DNA from: Selenomonas sp. oral taxon 892 str. F0426
GTDB lineage: Bacteria; Bacillota; Negativicutes; Selenomonadales; Selenomonadaceae
DNA: 64,000 nt
Direction: 5' to 3'
Assembly: GCF_000468035.1 (NCBI RefSeq)
Contig: NZ_KI260535.1
Span: 1-64,000 of the forward strand
Below are positions 1-32,004 of the stretch, in pieces. Position 1 is the first letter of the stretch; every line of letters starts with the position of its first letter. The position numbers were made by a program, and so were the translations under genes. The notes beneath the pieces were generated by a model, which saw nothing but the letters and a program-made list of their open reading frames with translations, ran no database searches and was not told the DNA's origin.

Positions 1-32
1 TGCTGCACGAAGCTTTTTAGCTTCGTGCAGCA
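1..32 (-). terminator. Terminator hairpin after lptB
   Basis: Perfect 14-bp inverted repeat (1-14 with 19-32) around a TTTT loop, just downstream of the lptB stop codon. The T-run expected on the minus strand would lie beyond the left edge, so termination is inferred. The inner part of the stem is GCACGAAG, which recurs in other terminators in this window. Confidence 0.7.
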
Positions 33-57
33 GCCCCTCTTCGTGTTCTTCCCCCGA

Positions 58-17330: not shown

Positions 17331-17370
17331 AATGCGGTACGAAGCTGTTTTGACTTCGTACCGCATTTTT
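17331..17370. terminator. Bidirectional terminator between MFS gene and leuB
   Basis: 14-bp inverted repeat AATGCGGTACGAAG/CTTCGTACCGCATT (17331-17344 with 17354-17367) with a T-run on the plus strand; it lies between convergent genes. The inner core GTACGAAG is shared with other terminators in the window. Confidence 0.85.
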
Positions 17371-25095: not shown

Positions 25096-25233
25096 TCGTA
25101 TCACCTCTTTTATATACTGCCCCTGCGGGCGTCCTTATTATAGAACGATTCTCCCACACACGCAACTGCCCAATGAAAATAATTCTGTATACAGGAGACA
25201 GGCATATCCGCCGTTTGGAGGCCCTTCACCTAC

Positions 25234-25262
25234 TGGACAGGGCTTTATATTGTGCTTATAAT
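25234..25262 (+). promoter_or_regulatory. Promoter of the thioesterase gene
   Basis: TGGACA (25234-25239), 17-base spacer, TATAAT (25257-25262); about 50 bases before the start codon. Confidence 0.7.
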
Positions 25263-25314
25263 ATGCGTAGGTTTTCAAATGCTCAGTCTGTATGATAAGC
25301 AAAGGAGCAGACAA

Positions 25315-25713
25315 ATGGACTACACAAGCAAGATCGCCGTCGGCATGACCCATGAGGCAGTGGACACGGTAACGGACGTGAATACGGCGGTAACCGTCGG
25401 CAGCGGCTCGCTCGCGGTGTACGCAACGCCCGCGATGGCAGCCCTTATGGAGCGTGCGGCAGCGGAACTCTGCCAGCAGGAGTGTCCCGAGGGCTGGACA
25501 ACAGTCGGTACGGAGCTGCATATCAAGCATCGTGCGGCAACGCCGACGGGACTCACTGTCCGCGCCATCGCCGAGGTAACGGCAGTGGACGGGCGTGCAA
25601 TCTCACTCAAGGTGACGGCGTACGACGAGCGCGAGGAGATCGGTACGGGCACACACATGCGCTTTGCTGTTGCCGTTGAGAAATTTATGGAAAAGGCAGA
25701 GGGGAAGCGCTGA
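25315..25713 (+). CDS. Hot-dog thioesterase, FlK-like
   Basis: A 132-residue hot-dog fold protein resembling the FlK (fluoroacetyl-CoA thioesterase)-like group: THEAVDTVTDVNTAVTVGSG, ATPAMAALMERAA, TVGTELHIKHRAATPTG and GTHMRFAVAVEKF. It probably hydrolyses a small acyl-CoA; the substrate is unknown and fluoroacetate is not implied. The ATG at 25315 lies after AAAGGAG; an in-frame extension upstream overlaps the promoter. It is a single-gene unit, convergent with the autotransporter. Confidence 0.8.
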   Translation: MDYTSKIAVGMTHEAVDTVTDVNTAVTVGSGSLAVYATPAMAALMERAAAELCQQECPEGWTTVGTELHIKHRAATPTGLTVRAIAEVTAVDGRAISLKVTAYDEREEIGTGTHMRFAVAVEKFMEKAEGKR

Positions 25714-25721
25714 TATAACGC

Positions 25722-25775
25722 AATAAAATAGACGGCGGTACGAAGTGTGAACTTCGTACCGCCGTCCGTTTTATT
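25722..25775. terminator. Bidirectional terminator, thioesterase/autotransporter
   Basis: 15-bp perfect stem GACGGCGGTACGAAG/CTTCGTACCGCCGTC (25731-25745 with 25752-25766), extended by AATAAAA/TTTTATT. Inner core GTACGAAG is identical to the terminator at 17331. Confidence 0.88.
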
Positions 25776-25840: not shown

Positions 25841-28800
25841 TTAGAATCCCCAGGCAATGTTGAAACCGCCCGTGATGCCCTTACGCTTGCCCGCATATCC
25901 CGTGAGGTTCAGACCATAGGTGACGGTGCTGTCCGCCGGAGCGAAGCGGTAGCCAAGCTCGAAGAGTGTCGTGCCTCCCTTGAGGCTCGTACCCGGCAGG
26001 CCAAAGCCCTGATAGGACGCCGAGCTCTTGCCGTCAAATTCATACTCCCACGCAAGTCCTGCGTAGAGTTCCGAGTCAAGGCCGTTCTTGATCGTATAGC
26101 GCGTACCGAAGCGCAGGCGGCTCGAGTTCGACGCACCGAAGTCATACGTCTCACCGCTCGAGAGTTTCGTGCTCATCCCCGCCTGATGTGCATAGAAGTA
26201 CTTTGCATAGGTCTCAAACCGGTTGCCGCTCAGGAACTCTCTCTTCTGTCCGACGCCAAGATGTCCGGCAAAGTAGGTGCTCGATCCGTCATAGCTTGTC
26301 GCACGATCACCGACTGCACCGCTGTAGTCACTCTTTGCCTTACCGACGCGGAGGCTTCCCTCAATGTAGGTGCCACTCGTATTCTCCGACTTCGCCATGA
26401 CACCGAAGCCGAGGTAGCTCGTCTTGCCGTCCCCATGCGCGCCATCATCCAGGTAGGAGTCATACGAGCCGCGTCCGTACTCAATGAAAGGCCCGAAGGT
26501 GAGCGAGCTGCTCAGAAGCTCGTTGCGGCGTGCAAAGCCGACATTGAGGTTCCATCCCTTCGCATCGACGTGCGAGCCAGTCTTGAGGCGCATACTGCCA
26601 TAGCTCTGTGCTGCGAACAGCTGATAGCTGCCAAGGGTTGACAGGGGCACCGCCGTTGCGCCGGAATTTTTCTCGCCGCTCGCAAGCGGTGCATCCACGA
26701 TGTCCGCGATCTGCGTTGCGGCAACCTCTGCCGCAGGGATACCGACATCCGTGAGGAGGTCTGAGCCGCTTGTGAGGAAGGCAATCGCCGCCGACTGCGT
26801 CTCGACGAGAGATTTCGCTCCCTCCTTCACAGTAACCGACTTCACCCGCCCGATCAGTTCATTCTTATAGCTCGACGAGGCGTTGACGCTATTGCGTGTC
26901 TCAAGCGCAAAGGTATAGTTCAGCGTGACTCCCTGAGTCGTCTTGTACTCCTTGCCGGTAAAGTCATCCGTCGTGAGGTTCTTGTCCGAGGGCAGTTTGA
27001 TGAGGCTGACAATATCGCCGTTATGAATCGGTGCACCGTCTCCATCAATATCGATGCCAAGACTCATCCCCCGAATGTCCTTATGTGACGAATCGGTCAG
27101 CGTCAGCATCGAGAAACGCATATCCGATTTCGGGCTGAGGTAGAAGTTGAGGTTCTGGAAACCCTCGAAATAGCCCACCGTTGTGCCCGTATCATAGATA
27201 TTCAGCGTATTTCCGTCCGTAAGGGGTGCGGGGCCGTCGTTCGCGGGCGATCCCGTCGAAAGCCAGCCGCCGTAGACATGCCCCTTCACGGTCGTACCGC
27301 GCAGCGTGACGGTGTTGTCTTTTGCCGTCTTGCCCCAGCCGCCGTAGACATTGCCGCCGATCATGCTGCCGTTGTCTGCAATCCTGCCGATGGTAACGCG
27401 CCCGAGATCGACAATGCTCTTTTCCACGTCACCGCTGACCGAATAGCCGCCGTAGATATTGCCGACGACCGAACCATTCAGCACCTGAACGCGGTTGGAT
27501 GAGAGCTTCAGCTTACTCTCGGACTTTGCGCCGTAGATATTGCCTGTGAGATTGCCGTGCAGGAGGGTGACACTGTTGTCCGTCATCTCTCCGTCGCTCG
27601 CAATGTTCTTCGCATACGCGCCGTAAACGTCACGGATGCTCAGAGCAACATCGCGGTCGATGGTGAGCGCGTTGCTCGTGAGGTTCGCCTTCTTTTCGCC
27701 CGTCGTGACACCGGCCGCAGCAAAGGTCTTGATGCCGTCCGCCTGCGTTCCCGTGATGAGGAGCTTGTTCCGCTCCACATCATAGCCCATCGCAGAGATT
27801 CCTGTGAACACCTCATCGCTCACGAGTTTGGCATCTGTGCCGTCATAGCGGCGATCACCGTCGCGCAGACGGTTGACCGTCAGCAGAACATCCTGCCCTG
27901 TGACCGTCCCCGCAGCCGTTGTCGTGCTCTGGTTGCCGTTGATATGCAGATAAGCTTCGTAGGGATCGTTCGGATAGTAGGTCTTTGTGATATCCGTCGC
28001 AGAGTAGTTCGAGAAGTTCATCCCGTCCGCACTCTGAATGAGTCTGAGCGAATGTGAACCCATCCACGTCGGATCAATGTTGAACTTCTGAGCATCCACC
28101 GTGATCTTCTTAAAATCAACGATTGTGCCAAGACCGCCCGCGCCCTTGATATGGAGCATGGTCTTCCCGATGAGCGTGTTGTTGTGGAGAACGAATTTGA
28201 AGGTGTCGAAATTGCGAACCTTGTTGACCACAACCTGTTTCTTGTTGTCCGAGCTGTCGCCCGCCTGCACAATGAGCGTGTTGTCCGCGCCCGCGCCGGT
28301 ATCGTTCGCACCGTAGATATCGCCCTCGATGGTCGCGTCGTAGCTGCCGTTGTCCGCACCGAGGATGAGTGTATTCTTCGTCGCCTGACCTGCAGACGCA
28401 GACCAGCCTGCAAAGACGTTGCCCGTCACCTTGCCGCCCGTAATCTGAACGGTATTGTCCGTAACTGCACCCGTACCTGCAGAGTAGCCGCCATAGAGCG
28501 TCCCCGCCGTACCGCCTGCCATAAGGACGCGGTTGTTCTGCACTGTGCCGTCATTGTTGCTGCGCCCGATGTAGCCGCCATAGCCCTCCGTCACAGAGAA
28601 GGGATTTGTGCCCGTGGATCGAATCTCGAGGGTATTCCCGTCATTGGGGGTTGTGCCGCCCGATCCGCCTGTCTTGCCGAGTGTCTTGGCGCCGTATGCT
28701 CTGATACTGCGGGTCAGCGTGCCATCGATGGTCAGACGGTTGTGCCTGGTCGTCTGCCCGCCGTAAGAGCGACCGCCAAACCACTCCTCCTTGCTTGCAT

Positions 28801-31800
28801 CCGTTGCATCGTATGTCAGATTTCCGTTTTGGAAACGGTTGTAGTCGAGCAGGAGCTTCTGCGCAGACGCTGTGTTCGTGTTCGTACGCATTGAGTACTC
28901 ATAGTCGCCGTTTGTCAGTGTCACAGCCGAGGCAGCAATCGGATCGTAGCTTCTAAATACAAGTCCATTGGTTCGGCTGGCGTCGATCAGCGTGACAGTA
29001 CCTGCAACCTGCCGATTCGACATCCGCTCCGTATCAAGTCCGAAGTTGGCAGCGTTAAAGTCCACCGTCTGATAGTCGAACCCATTCGGATCAGTCAGCG
29101 TAAGCATGGTATCGCCGGCATTCACCTGATCCGTGAGGAAGAACTTATAGCTCTGGAAGTTGTGGACCCCCTTGACTGTGATGTTCTTCGCCTTGACATT
29201 CAGCGTATTTCCGTCTGCCGTTGTTGCACCGCCGTACAGAGTCACATGGGTGAGGTCTGCGGCATACGCGCCGTCCTTTGAACCAAGGTTGATTGTATTC
29301 CCTGTCTCAACGGTCTTATTCGTCCCGCGGGCATAGCCGCCATAGATGGTGGAATCCACCGTCGAGTTATCCTCGCGCAAGCCGCCGACACGACCGCCCG
29401 TGATGGTAACGATGTTCTTGCCGGAGGAAGATGCCTTTATGCTCGAGTTCAAGGGAGGCAGGTTGGCATGGGTCACGCCGCCGTAGATATTGCCGTGAAC
29501 CGTGCCGCCATCGACATTGACCTCATTCTCCGTGACAGCGGCTGCATTCACAGCGGCTGAGGTGCTCTCACCGCCTGTGATATGATTGCGAACATCCCCG
29601 CTCGAGATTGTGACGATGTTCTTCGTCACCGCTGCCGTATCTCCTGCACCGGCAGACATTGCTCCATAGATATCGTTCACACGGGCAGCATCGGAGGAGA
29701 CTGTGACCTCGTTTGCCTCTATACGGCCGCTGCCGTCTGTATGAGCACCGTAGATCGTCTCTCCGACCTTCGCCGTACCTGTAACTATGACCTTATTTTC
29801 CTTCGCCGTACCGATATCCGTCAGATGAGCGCCGTAGATCTCCTTGGCAGAGCCTCCACTCATCGTGACCGTGTTCTTCTCGACAGTCGGCGTATAGGTA
29901 TCCTGTGCACCGCTGGCCAAGAAATCACCGTAGACACCATAGACGATCGCCCGAATATCGCCCTCTGTGATCGTTACTGTATTCCCCGTAGCCTTGCGGC
30001 TGACACGGTCATCCCCGTCGATATAACCGCCGACAACATTCCCGCCAATGACCGAGTGAACGGTATTTGTGATGTGATTGCCTCCGACATTGATCTCATT
30101 CTCCTCGACGAGGGTCTTGCCGGAGCCGCCTGTCACGCTGCCATAAACCGTGGCGTTCTCCACGGTAACTTTATTCTTTCGAACCGTGCCTGTCCCATTG
30201 GACGAGAAACCACCGGTGATATTTCCCGTTACCGTCCCACCGGTCAGCGCGACCTCATTCTCCTCTACATTGCCTGCCATTTCAGCATGTCCGCCATAGA
30301 GGTTCTGCATCACGCCGCCCGTCATCGTGAGGGTATTTTTCATGACGTGTGCACCGGTGGAGCTATAGCCACCATATGCTTCCAACGTTGCCTGATAGCG
30401 ACTGTTTGGCAGGAGAGTGCCGCCCGCATTTGTAATTTTCAGCTTGTTGTTTTGGACAATCTGGTTCTCCCAGATGGAGTACCCGCCATAAATTTTTCCA
30501 TTCACAATGGAGGAACTGCTGTAAGTGGCATCCGCATTCTGGAAACGGTGGAGTTCCGCCTTAACCTCATTCCAGGCCGTTGAATGCGCAGGAGTAAGAG
30601 GATAGTCCCGTGTCGTATAAGAGTTCACCGAAAGTTGATACTCATAGTCACCGCTGACTCCCGTCGGCTGCGCGGAGGGGTTCGTGATATAGAGGTTTGA
30701 GACACGGTCGCTGAGCGTAGGATTGTTTGGCGTTTTGCCGTCTTTCATCAGGGTGATTGTGCCAACATTGCCATAGTATTTCTTTACGCCATCGGGCTTC
30801 CCCTCTGCTGTCGTTCCGCTCCAGCCAGCTGCATCAACGCTGAAGTCTTCGAGGCTCACACCGCGTCCAAGGGCATTGCCGTCCTCTGTGAGCGTCAACA
30901 TCGTATGCCCTGTACGGGAAAGCGTTGTATTCTCCGCATCGATGCCCGTATTCAGTGCAAAGGTATATTTATTAAAATTCTTCGCAGAGATTGCATCAAC
31001 ATTCTTTGTACGGACGGTCAGTATGTTATTGCCGTAGTGAACCGTATCATTGCCGCCATAAATCTCAGCCTGTGAGAGGTTTGGCGTATAAATGCCGTTC
31101 TCATCCCCAAGTGTGACACGGTTTCCCGCCGTTGCTCCGTTGGTGGAGATGTTCTCAGCATATCCGCCGTAGATCCGCCCCTCGACTCTGCCGCGTTCGA
31201 TGACAACATCGTTGTTGTTTGCCGAGGTCTTTCCCCTGCCGCCCGCAATGGCAATGCCGTCCGCTCCGGCTCTGACGGATCCCTCAATCGAGCCGCCCGC
31301 ATTCGTCATCTCCACCTTGCCGCTTGTTGCACCGCCTGCAACAGAGTATGCGCCGTACAACGATCCAATGACCGTTCCGCCGCTCATCCGAACCGTGTTC
31401 TTCGGAGCCTTTGCATCTGTCTGCTGAACCATGCTCTGTGCATGACCGCCATGAAGCTGACCCCTTACCATACCGCCGTTCATCACAACGGTATTGTTGA
31501 CAACATTTCCCTTGCCGATGCCGCCGTAGCCATTGCCAACGAGACCGATGTTATTGATGGTGAGCGTATTGCCTGTCACCAGATTCGTTGTGTCACTCGT
31601 TCCGCCCGCTGTAATCGTGCCGTTCACACGGGGGAGGTTGATGCTCGGCTGTGTCAGCACACCAATCGTAAGATGGTTGTCTGCTACGGAGCCGTTCATC
31701 AGATTCGTACCGACAATGTCACCGTACGGCTTCAGTGCAGTACCATCCTGTCCGTTGATGACATCGCCCGTACGGACCGTGTGCTCTGCCGCATACGCCG

Positions 31801-31882
31801 CAGGCAGCCCCGCAAAGGCGCCGCCGACCGCGAGTGCCACGAATGCGGCGAGCTGCCGCTGAGATTTCATTCCTTTGAGCAT
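25841..31882 (-). CDS. Large autotransporter adhesin-like protein with C-terminal beta-barrel
   Basis: A 2013-residue secreted protein. The signal peptide is residues 1-31 (MLKGMKSQRQ, hydrophobic core, cleavage after PAAYA). The passenger, to about residue 1730, is dozens of short beta-helix repeats of the form N-x-V-x-(I/M)-x-GG-x-V-x-G-x-IYGG, broken by several spacer blocks with related sequence (for example MLTLTEDGNALGRGVSLEDF and MLTLTDPNGFDYQTVDF). The last ~280 residues form an autotransporter barrel ending in Phe (FNIAWGF). It is probably displayed on the outer membrane as an adhesin. The ATG at 31882 lies 7 bases after AGGAG. Own promoter and terminator, so a single-gene unit. No catalytic motif seen. 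Confidence 0.88.
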   Translation of the reverse strand: MLKGMKSQRQLAAFVALAVGGAFAGLPAAYAAEHTVRTGDVINGQDGTALKPYGDIVGTNLMNGSVADNHLTIGVLTQPSINLPRVNGTITAGGTSDTTNLVTGNTLTINNIGLVGNGYGGIGKGNVVNNTVVMNGGMVRGQLHGGHAQSMVQQTDAKAPKNTVRMSGGTVIGSLYGAYSVAGGATSGKVEMTNAGGSIEGSVRAGADGIAIAGGRGKTSANNNDVVIERGRVEGRIYGGYAENISTNGATAGNRVTLGDENGIYTPNLSQAEIYGGNDTVHYGNNILTVRTKNVDAISAKNFNKYTFALNTGIDAENTTLSRTGHTMLTLTEDGNALGRGVSLEDFSVDAAGWSGTTAEGKPDGVKKYYGNVGTITLMKDGKTPNNPTLSDRVSNLYITNPSAQPTGVSGDYEYQLSVNSYTTRDYPLTPAHSTAWNEVKAELHRFQNADATYSSSSIVNGKIYGGYSIWENQIVQNNKLKITNAGGTLLPNSRYQATLEAYGGYSSTGAHVMKNTLTMTGGVMQNLYGGHAEMAGNVEENEVALTGGTVTGNITGGFSSNGTGTVRKNKVTVENATVYGSVTGGSGKTLVEENEINVGGNHITNTVHSVIGGNVVGGYIDGDDRVSRKATGNTVTITEGDIRAIVYGVYGDFLASGAQDTYTPTVEKNTVTMSGGSAKEIYGAHLTDIGTAKENKVIVTGTAKVGETIYGAHTDGSGRIEANEVTVSSDAARVNDIYGAMSAGAGDTAAVTKNIVTISSGDVRNHITGGESTSAAVNAAAVTENEVNVDGGTVHGNIYGGVTHANLPPLNSSIKASSSGKNIVTITGGRVGGLREDNSTVDSTIYGGYARGTNKTVETGNTINLGSKDGAYAADLTHVTLYGGATTADGNTLNVKAKNITVKGVHNFQSYKFFLTDQVNAGDTMLTLTDPNGFDYQTVDFNAANFGLDTERMSNRQVAGTVTLIDASRTNGLVFRSYDPIAASAVTLTNGDYEYSMRTNTNTASAQKLLLDYNRFQNGNLTYDATDASKEEWFGGRSYGGQTTRHNRLTIDGTLTRSIRAYGAKTLGKTGGSGGTTPNDGNTLEIRSTGTNPFSVTEGYGGYIGRSNNDGTVQNNRVLMAGGTAGTLYGGYSAGTGAVTDNTVQITGGKVTGNVFAGWSASAGQATKNTLILGADNGSYDATIEGDIYGANDTGAGADNTLIVQAGDSSDNKKQVVVNKVRNFDTFKFVLHNNTLIGKTMLHIKGAGGLGTIVDFKKITVDAQKFNIDPTWMGSHSLRLIQSADGMNFSNYSATDITKTYYPNDPYEAYLHINGNQSTTTAAGTVTGQDVLLTVNRLRDGDRRYDGTDAKLVSDEVFTGISAMGYDVERNKLLITGTQADGIKTFAAAGVTTGEKKANLTSNALTIDRDVALSIRDVYGAYAKNIASDGEMTDNSVTLLHGNLTGNIYGAKSESKLKLSSNRVQVLNGSVVGNIYGGYSVSGDVEKSIVDLGRVTIGRIADNGSMIGGNVYGGWGKTAKDNTVTLRGTTVKGHVYGGWLSTGSPANDGPAPLTDGNTLNIYDTGTTVGYFEGFQNLNFYLSPKSDMRFSMLTLTDSSHKDIRGMSLGIDIDGDGAPIHNGDIVSLIKLPSDKNLTTDDFTGKEYKTTQGVTLNYTFALETRNSVNASSSYKNELIGRVKSVTVKEGAKSLVETQSAAIAFLTSGSDLLTDVGIPAAEVAATQIADIVDAPLASGEKNSGATAVPLSTLGSYQLFAAQSYGSMRLKTGSHVDAKGWNLNVGFARRNELLSSSLTFGPFIEYGRGSYDSYLDDGAHGDGKTSYLGFGVMAKSENTSGTYIEGSLRVGKAKSDYSGAVGDRATSYDGSSTYFAGHLGVGQKREFLSGNRFETYAKYFYAHQAGMSTKLSSGETYDFGASNSSRLRFGTRYTIKNGLDSELYAGLAWEYEFDGKSSASYQGFGLPGTSLKGGTTLFELGYRFAPADSTVTYGLNLTGYAGKRKGITGGFNIAWGF

Positions 31883-31975
31883 TGCTTTCTCTCCTTCATC
31901 GTACAGTAGAACGTATCCATCCTTTGCAGCGCCGGGCACTGCGTTCATTGGCTATGAAGTTTTCTCATTTATCTA

Positions 31976-32004
31976 TTATATTACGCACGTCCGAAAACGT
32001 CAAT
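31976..32004 (-). promoter_or_regulatory. Promoter of the autotransporter gene
   Basis: Minus-strand TTGACG (31999-32004), 17-base spacer, TATAAT (31976-31981). It leaves a leader of about 85 bases. It starts just below the trmN6-like stop codon. Confidence 0.8.

What the first reader, a model, noticed from the sequence alone, without database searches (positions are those of the whole stretch)
25841..31882. A 2013-residue autotransporter with dozens of IYGG beta-helix repeats
The passenger repeats share an N-x-V-x-I-x-GG...IYGG pattern, interrupted by at least three related longer blocks (around MLTLTEDGN, MLTLTDPNG and MLHIKGAGG), which suggests internal duplication of a ~350-450-residue unit. 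The gene has its own strong promoter. It may be phase- or length-variable by recombination between the blocks.
Basis: partly seen in the sequence, partly recalled or inferred. Interest (0 to 1): 0.5.

Follow-up and report, generated by a model that had tools for sequence, protein, structure and literature searches.

The report
Mosaic giant autotransporter of oral Selenomonas
A very long surface protein of a mouth bacterium is built from old internal repeats, and parts of it have been swapped between related species while the genes around it have not, a pattern already described for surface proteins of other mouth bacteria.

Summary
The gene is real: 25841-31882, minus strand, 2013 aa. By architecture it is a classical (type Va) autotransporter: Sec-type signal, long parallel beta-helix passenger, linker helix, 12-strand barrel (AlphaFold2; best Foldseek matches EstA, BrkA, EspP, AIDA-I, NalP). 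The repeats and larger blocks exist; there are four blocks, not three. Phase or length variation by recombination between the blocks is not supported for this gene: seven aligned orthologs (own included) keep the four blocks, each block is orthologous by position, lengths are 1938-2020 aa, and the own gene has no long near-identical internal repeat and no homopolymer of 7 or more. Strains of one species could not be compared. What varies is which passenger a species carries. At 4-fold sites flanking genes are 54-66% identical in all 21 species pairs, but passenger aa 157-1677 is 91.5% identical between Centipeda periodontii and S. massiliensis, with breaks at aa 156 and 1678, the second near the passenger/translocator junction. 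The barrel has a different history. The window's gene shares aa 1043-1649 with Selenomonas sp. FOBRC6. The locus is occupied in 12 of 14 genus genomes. Likely role: surface adhesin (inferred). Similar mosaicism is published for Fusobacterium and Veillonella adhesins: a new member of a known kind.

The parts
25841..31882 (-). autotransporter gene, 2013 aa plus stop
   Evidence: (full-length open orthologs in 6 other genomes)
31975..32003 (-). sigma-70-type promoter TTGACG-17-TATAAT
   Evidence: equivalent site upstream of 7 of 7 orthologs, (by eye)
31787..31882 (-). signal peptide, aa 1-32 (MLKGMKSQRQLAAFVALAVGGAFAGLPAAYAA)
   Evidence: hydrophobic core; cleavage site inferred by eye; conserved
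31415..31786 (-). aa 33-156, N-terminal passenger stretch outside the exchanged segment of two species pairs
   Evidence: breakpoints at aa 156 and 157
26849..31414 (-). aa 157-1678, passenger segment that is nearly identical as one piece in the C. periodontii / S. massiliensis pair
28133..30520 (-). aa 455-1250, predicted parallel beta-helix (pLDDT 89.2)
30473..31081 (-). block B1, aa 268-470 (anchor MLTLTEDGN, M328)
28748..29287 (-). block B2, aa 866-1045 (anchor MLTLTDPNG, M926)
27791..28339 (-). block B3, aa 1182-1364 (anchor MLHIKGAGG, M1242)
   Evidence: (above shuffles against B2 only)
26936..28756 (-). aa 1043-1649, segment nearly identical with Selenomonas sp. FOBRC6 (89.5% at 4-fold sites against 54.1% in flanking genes)
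26696..26824 (-). predicted linker helix, aa 1687-1729
   Evidence: model residues 280-322
25850..26623 (-). predicted 12-strand beta-barrel, aa 1754-2011; the protein ends in F
25730..25767 (-). strong hairpin terminator, scored on both strands, between this gene and the convergent thioesterase gene

Best explanation
The gene encodes a classical type Va autotransporter. A signal peptide sends it through Sec, the 12-strand barrel sits in the outer membrane with the linker helix in its pore, and a passenger of about 1650 residues folds outside as a long parallel beta-helix whose coils carry the N-x-V-x-I...IYGG motif and whose four larger blocks interrupt it. It most likely works as a surface adhesin (self-aggregation or co-aggregation in dental biofilm). 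It lies at a fixed chromosomal locus between a methyltransferase gene and diaminopimelate dehydrogenase, which holds one or two such genes in 12 of 14 genus genomes. Homologous recombination between species of the genus has replaced passenger and barrel segments separately, so the surface changes while signal, export barrel and neighbouring genes stay. Shown: gene, architecture by prediction, locus, mosaicism. Inferred: adhesion, DNA uptake as the route, and selection for a changed surface.
For: Translocator: 8 of 21 family C-termini match PF03797, best 1.4e-15, the window's own does not; AlphaFold2 of aa 1408-2013 (pLDDT 87.1) shows one long helix then 12 strands (strands counted by me, split ones taken as one); Foldseek best hits EstA, BrkA (TM 0.88 by target), EspP, AIDA-I, NalP. 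Passenger model pLDDT 89.2 aligns to beta-helices: Z 19.8 antifreeze 3p4g, 17.9 TibA, 15.2 antigen 43, 13.6 pertactin. Mosaicism: the flank (6696 nt, 8 genes) is 81.5-87.3% identical in all 21 pairs; AU tests reject the passenger and barrel trees on the flank data and the flank tree on each of three passenger segments and the barrel. 300-nt windows of 94% or more: 34 of 441 in the gene, 2 of 462 in the flank. 4-fold sites: C. periodontii / S. massiliensis 91.5% in aa 157-1677 against 59.0% flank and 62.6% barrel; FOBRC6 / S. massiliensis 90.4% in aa 1676-1895 against 49.1% in the passenger. Locus: positions against searches show it occupied in 12 of 14 genus genomes. ComEC (PF03772) in 14 of 14.
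Against: No function was tested. The window's protein alone hits no Pfam model at E 0.01 or NCBIfam model at E 1. Foldseek gives only weak passenger matches (best E 2.9e-3, none at 0.001), and beta-helix enzymes and phage tailspikes score about as well as adhesins. ComEC rings in 10 of 14 control genomes including E. coli, so it is weak evidence for transformation. High identity between species is not confined to autotransporter genes: some stretches run into neighbouring genes. Seven species, one genome each; direction of exchange unknown. Weak branches: bootstrap 41 (aa 1-90) and 54 (aa 91-450) inside the passenger group of the window, 70 for the FOBRC6 / S. massiliensis barrel pair. On aa 1-90 one passenger tree is not rejected (p 0.137) and two only just (0.043, 0.049).
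Confidence: 0.7

Rival explanations
1. The gene varies in length or phase within a strain by slippage or by recombination between its own blocks.
For: Blocks are related. Four sibling genes of S. massiliensis and S. infelix have internal DNA matches of 89-99% over 230-600 nt among the best four shown for each. Family frames differ widely in length, up to 4106 aa (fragments, frame-split genes and a gene with unresolved bases included).
Against: In this gene no long near-identical DNA repeat, no tandem repeat, no homopolymer of 7 or more, and four position-specific blocks and 1938-2020 aa in 7 of 7 orthologs.
Confidence: 0.07
2. The passenger identity between species reflects strong purifying selection on the protein, not exchange.
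For: Protein identity is high in the shared segments (94-100% per 100-column window for C. periodontii / S. massiliensis from aa 184 to 1668).
Against: 4-fold sites are also 87-92% identical in the shared segments, against 54-66% in flanking genes, with sharp edges; the same passenger DNA is only 55-79% identical per window to the other passenger types in the genus (aa 84-1668).
Confidence: 0.03
3. The passenger is an enzyme (polysaccharide lyase-like beta-helix) acting on glycans in plaque rather than an adhesin.
For: PL6 alginate lyases and tailspikes align at Z 12-16; a weak polysaccharide-lyase resemblance was reported for Veillonella autotransporter Vpar_0330 (PMC5491611, passages read).
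Against: These share a fold only (6-12% identity); no Pfam enzyme model matches; the Gly/Thr/Asn-rich repeats without cysteine look structural.
Confidence: 0.12
4. Surface cover under diversifying selection from phages or the immune system, with adhesion secondary; the exchange of passengers is mainly for changing the face shown.
For: Several passenger types at one locus, with barrel and promoter kept; one genus genome (G013) has an empty locus, so the gene is dispensable there.
Against: No phage or immune data; the same pattern would follow from swapping adhesin specificities.
Confidence: 0.2

Closest known systems
Type Va autotransporter adhesins of Fusobacterium nucleatum (fap2, radD, cmpA; PMC10995627, abstract and one results section read)
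   Same: Type Va surface proteins of an oral anaerobe; recombination between lineages and subspecies gives mosaic alleles, while it was rare in the housekeeping genes tested there (gyrB the main exception).
   Different: There the mixing is mainly among F. nucleatum subspecies and lies all along the gene; here it is between species 81.5-87.3% identical in flanking genes, and two pairs break next to the passenger/translocator junction. No sequence relation was tested.
Trimeric autotransporter cluster of Veillonella (PMC7549365, passages read)
   Same: Negativicutes, oral, adhesin repertoire with domain swaps that the authors attribute to homologous recombination.
   Different: Those are trimeric YadA-type proteins; here YadA_anchor is in 0 of 14 genus genomes, in line with PMC5491611 (passages), which reports that Selenomonadaceae generally lack them.
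Chlamydia polymorphic membrane proteins (PMC11166332, outline and abstract only)
   Same: Autotransporter family with short motif repeats forming coils of a beta-helix.
   Different: Other motifs (GGA[ILV], FxxN) and another lineage.
Antigen 43, TibA, pertactin (solved passengers)
   Same: Parallel beta-helix passengers among the structural alignments with Z 13.6-17.9.
   Different: Shorter and 9-14% identical.

Membership tests
Type Va (classical) autotransporter | N-terminal Sec signal peptide | tested here: inconclusive
   Basic start, hydrophobic core and AYAA end seen, conserved in orthologs; no signal-peptide predictor was available.
Type Va (classical) autotransporter | C-terminal 12-strand barrel in the same chain | tested here: met
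   12 strands in the model (counted by me); TM by target 0.88 BrkA, 0.65-0.74 EspP and NalP for most rows.
Type Va (classical) autotransporter | Linker helix before the barrel | tested here: met
   Helix at aa 1687-1729 in the model.
Type Va (classical) autotransporter | Match to PF03797 | tested here: inconclusive
   Window protein: none at E 0.01; its C-terminus none at E 1. Relatives: 8 of 21 match. Of the six near orthologs, those in G002, G011, G007, G006 and G005 pass the curated cut-off; that of G008 and the window's own are not listed there.
Type Va (classical) autotransporter | Passenger is a parallel beta-helix | tested here: met
   Model of aa 455-1250 aligned to beta-helices with Z up to 19.8 over the first about 520 of its 796 residues; Foldseek alone weak. 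Of the rest only aa 1408 on was modelled.
Type Vc trimeric autotransporter (YadA type) | YadA_anchor domain | tested here: not met
   No Pfam match in the protein; 0 of 14 genus genomes carry PF03895 (the control rings in E. coli).
Phase-variable (contingency) gene | Simple-sequence tract or long internal repeats in gene or promoter | tested here: not met
Adhesin | Binding to cells or surfaces | not testable with these tools
   No assay; inferred from architecture only.

The most novel reading that the evidence does not exclude
The locus between the methyltransferase gene and diaminopimelate dehydrogenase is a genus-wide exchange site of oral Selenomonas/Centipeda: conserved signal region and translocator serve as homology arms, and whole passengers of about 1500 residues, or barrels, pass between species as cassettes, giving a shared pool of surface proteins across species borders. 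The window genome's sibling gene on contig C35 shows the same pattern (92.6-93.7% to S. massiliensis inside the gene against 72-74% in the two downstream matches).
Probability: 0.45. Interest if true: 0.55.

Novelty: new member of a known kind. Interest (0 to 1): 0.4.

Why it matters
Oral Selenomonas occur in periodontal plaque, and I know of little on how they attach (recalled, not searched beyond the calls named). This gives a defined locus, a domain plan and a set of natural passenger types on related barrels, which makes adhesion specificity testable by comparing species. It also shows that a species tree or strain typing based on these giant surface genes would mislead, since they do not follow the history of their neighbours.

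Tried and rejected
Self-BLASTP of the protein gave only the diagonal, so I used windowed local alignments with shuffles instead. A first flank tree was wrong, I think because stop symbols were lost in the aligner and shifted codons; one search replaces it and no number is used. The ORF 25138-25530 (-) that seemed conserved next to the gene lies antisense to a thioesterase gene. A DNA-uptake-like motif: terminator hairpins with an ACGAAG stem recur, but no 8-10-mer stands out in the window or in nine further stretches. Frame-split siblings as signs of phase variation: no homopolymer of 6 or more in the six stretches examined, with N in three of them, so they look like decay or assembly gaps. 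A profile search of the PDB by sequence gave only BrkA at E 0.5 and a de novo protein at 0.68. Passenger folds absent from the structural lists are not taken as excluded. Papers: the listings (30 of 34 shown; 12 of 12; 4 of 4; 15 of 55 shown; 5 of 5; 7 of 7) show, by title and start of abstract, none about an autotransporter gene of oral Selenomonas or Centipeda; the library lacks most subscription journals. PMC12089946 (Selenomonas shuttle vector) was seen in a listing only.
Full report
The observation. The gene at 25841-31882 on the minus strand encodes 2013 residues. The start at 31882 is better than the in-frame ATG at 31948: it has a ribosome-binding site and its M is invariant in 7 of 7 aligned orthologs, own included. 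A TTGACG-17-TATAAT promoter lies at 32003-31975 and an equivalent site is visible upstream of 7 of 7 orthologs (by eye). A strong hairpin at 25730-25767 follows the gene; on its other side is a convergent FlK-like thioesterase gene on the plus strand. The repeats are far beyond chance (26 relaxed motifs against a shuffled maximum of 11).

Larger blocks. Four blocks exist, anchored at M328, M926, M1242 and M1592. Four of the six block pairs score above all 300 shuffles of that pair; B1-B4 and B3-B4 do not. In a tree of 28 block sequences (four blocks from seven orthologs) each block type groups by its position and not by its genome (some deep branches have low support). The duplications are therefore older than these species.

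What kind of protein. The window's protein matches no Pfam model at E 0.01 and no NCBIfam model at E 1, but 8 of 21 relatives aligned over the last 580 residues match PF03797. AlphaFold2 on aa 1408-2013 with 46 sequences (pLDDT 87.1) gives beta strands of the passenger end, a helix at aa 1687-1729 and 12 barrel strands; the best structural matches are type Va autotransporters. The model of aa 455-1250 with 16 sequences (pLDDT 89.2) has only weak Foldseek matches, none at E 0.001. The second aligner, run on the 241 chains that Foldseek ranked highest, gives parallel beta-helices up to Z 19.8, among them TibA, antigen 43 and pertactin, but also tailspikes and lyases. No cysteine occurs in the protein.

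Family and distribution. In one search the own genome holds four further members (contigs C35, C5, C32 and a fragment at the start of C37); one search lists three more PF03797 places in it (C29 twice, C12). Of 60 genomes examined, own included, 28 have a match to the window's protein. A scan of the named genome collection gave 65 loci; most titles name Selenomonas, Centipeda, Anaerovibrio or other Selenomonadaceae, and weaker ones include Phascolarctobacterium, Betaproteobacteria and Planctomycetes. Contig lengths identify G011 as Centipeda periodontii DSM 2778, G008 as Selenomonas sp. FOBRC6, G007 as S. massiliensis and G005 as S. infelix. All 14 genus genomes have a PF03797 match (13 over the cut-off) and none has YadA_anchor, as PMC5491611 reports for Selenomonadaceae in general (passages).

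The locus. The methyltransferase and diaminopimelate dehydrogenase genes are present in 14 of 14 genus genomes. Comparing positions, members of the family (not all of them close orthologs) lie between them in 12 of 14. In S. flueggei (G009) the one there is in two frames with unresolved bases. G013 has about 1 kb there and no match to the window's protein, and in G003 the two genes are on different contigs. A second autotransporter lies beside the first in C. periodontii, S. infelix, FOBRC6, G006, G012 and G001; those of FOBRC6 and G001 are split into frames. The window has one.

Mosaicism. Seven full-length orthologs were compared. In the flank (8 genes, 6696 nt, including diaminopimelate dehydrogenase) every pair is 81.5-87.3% identical. 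In the gene, pairs range from 53 to 99% per 300-nt window. Passenger trees join own with FOBRC6 and G002, C. periodontii with S. massiliensis, and G006 with S. infelix; the barrel tree joins FOBRC6 with S. massiliensis (bootstrap 70) and puts G002 with G006 and S. infelix (100); the flank tree joins FOBRC6 with G006 and G002 with S. infelix (both 100). AU tests reject the barrel and flank trees on each of the three passenger segments, the passenger and flank trees on the barrel, and all gene trees on the flank. Among the passenger segments themselves, aa 91-450 does not distinguish the three passenger trees, while aa 451-1090 and aa 1100-1660 reject each other's tree, in line with the break near aa 1040. 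The short stretch aa 1-90 is poorly resolved. Best single breakpoints: aa 156 and 1678 for C. periodontii / S. massiliensis, 1674 for FOBRC6 / S. massiliensis, 157 for G006 / S. infelix, 1043 and 1649 for own / FOBRC6, 1040 for own / G002 (maximum-likelihood change points in chosen ranges, without a multiple-testing correction).

Why it is exchange. At 4-fold degenerate sites the flank is 53.6-66.4% identical in the 21 pairs. Inside the segments it is 91.5% (C. periodontii / S. massiliensis, aa 157-1677), 89.5% (own / FOBRC6, aa 1044-1648), 87.2% (G006 / S. infelix, aa 158-2013) and 90.4% (FOBRC6 / S. massiliensis, aa 1676-1895), and it falls to 49-63% next to them, except that own / FOBRC6 rises again to 91.3% in aa 1879-2013. 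Own / G002 and FOBRC6 / G002 are intermediate in places (76.4% and 72-72.4%). Selection on the protein is not expected to produce this. As a matched control, 2 of 462 flank windows reach 94%, both in diaminopimelate dehydrogenase, against 34 of 441 in the gene. The 1674-1678 breaks lie about ten residues before the predicted linker helix. The sibling gene on contig C35 shows the same contrast with S. massiliensis. One search lists 13 inter-species stretches of 500 nt or more at 92% or more among the autotransporter loci given to it; the window's gene is not among them, and some run into neighbouring genes, so high identity is not limited to this family. A genome-wide background was not computed; besides the flank, the first 20 kb of the window match the six other genomes in long blocks of 81-92%.

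What is not supported. The gene itself has no long near-identical repeats, no tandem repeat and no homopolymer of 7 or more.

Place in what is known. Mosaic type Va adhesins between subspecies of F. nucleatum are published (PMC10995627, abstract and one section read), and domain swaps among Veillonella trimeric adhesins are published (PMC7549365, passages read). I therefore call this a new member of a known kind. What I did not meet in the listings is this group, its fixed locus, and the break at the passenger/translocator junction seen in two pairs.

Noticed in passing
window 25252-25713 (+): FlK-like hotdog thioesterase gene (PF22636, 3.9e-33) convergent with the autotransporter; the minus-strand ORF 25138-25530 over it is probably spurious.
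   Followed up: yes
window 1-35, 17333-17365, 25731-25767: Hairpins share an ACGAAG stem, and the first 30-54 bases of the window match dozens of places in relatives. No uptake-motif-like enrichment of 8-10-mers.
   Followed up: partly
L059, L061, L060, L062: Sibling autotransporters of S. massiliensis (4106, 3459, 3658 aa) and S. infelix (3250 aa) hold internal DNA repeats of 89-99% over 230-600 nt: candidates for real length variation. The 4106-aa one contains unresolved bases.
   Followed up: partly
L055:1869-8841: The second autotransporter of FOBRC6 at this locus is split into three frames with no homopolymer at the junctions; possibly a decaying gene.
   Followed up: partly
L057:13584-13760: The leader of the G002 ortholog carries a run of 9 G between promoter and start, a possible slippage site absent from the window.
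   Followed up: no
L019: The window genome's own 2820-aa sibling is 92.6-93.7% identical to S. massiliensis inside the gene and 72-74% in two downstream matches.
   Followed up: partly
G013: One genus genome has the locus empty and no match to the window's protein.
   Followed up: no
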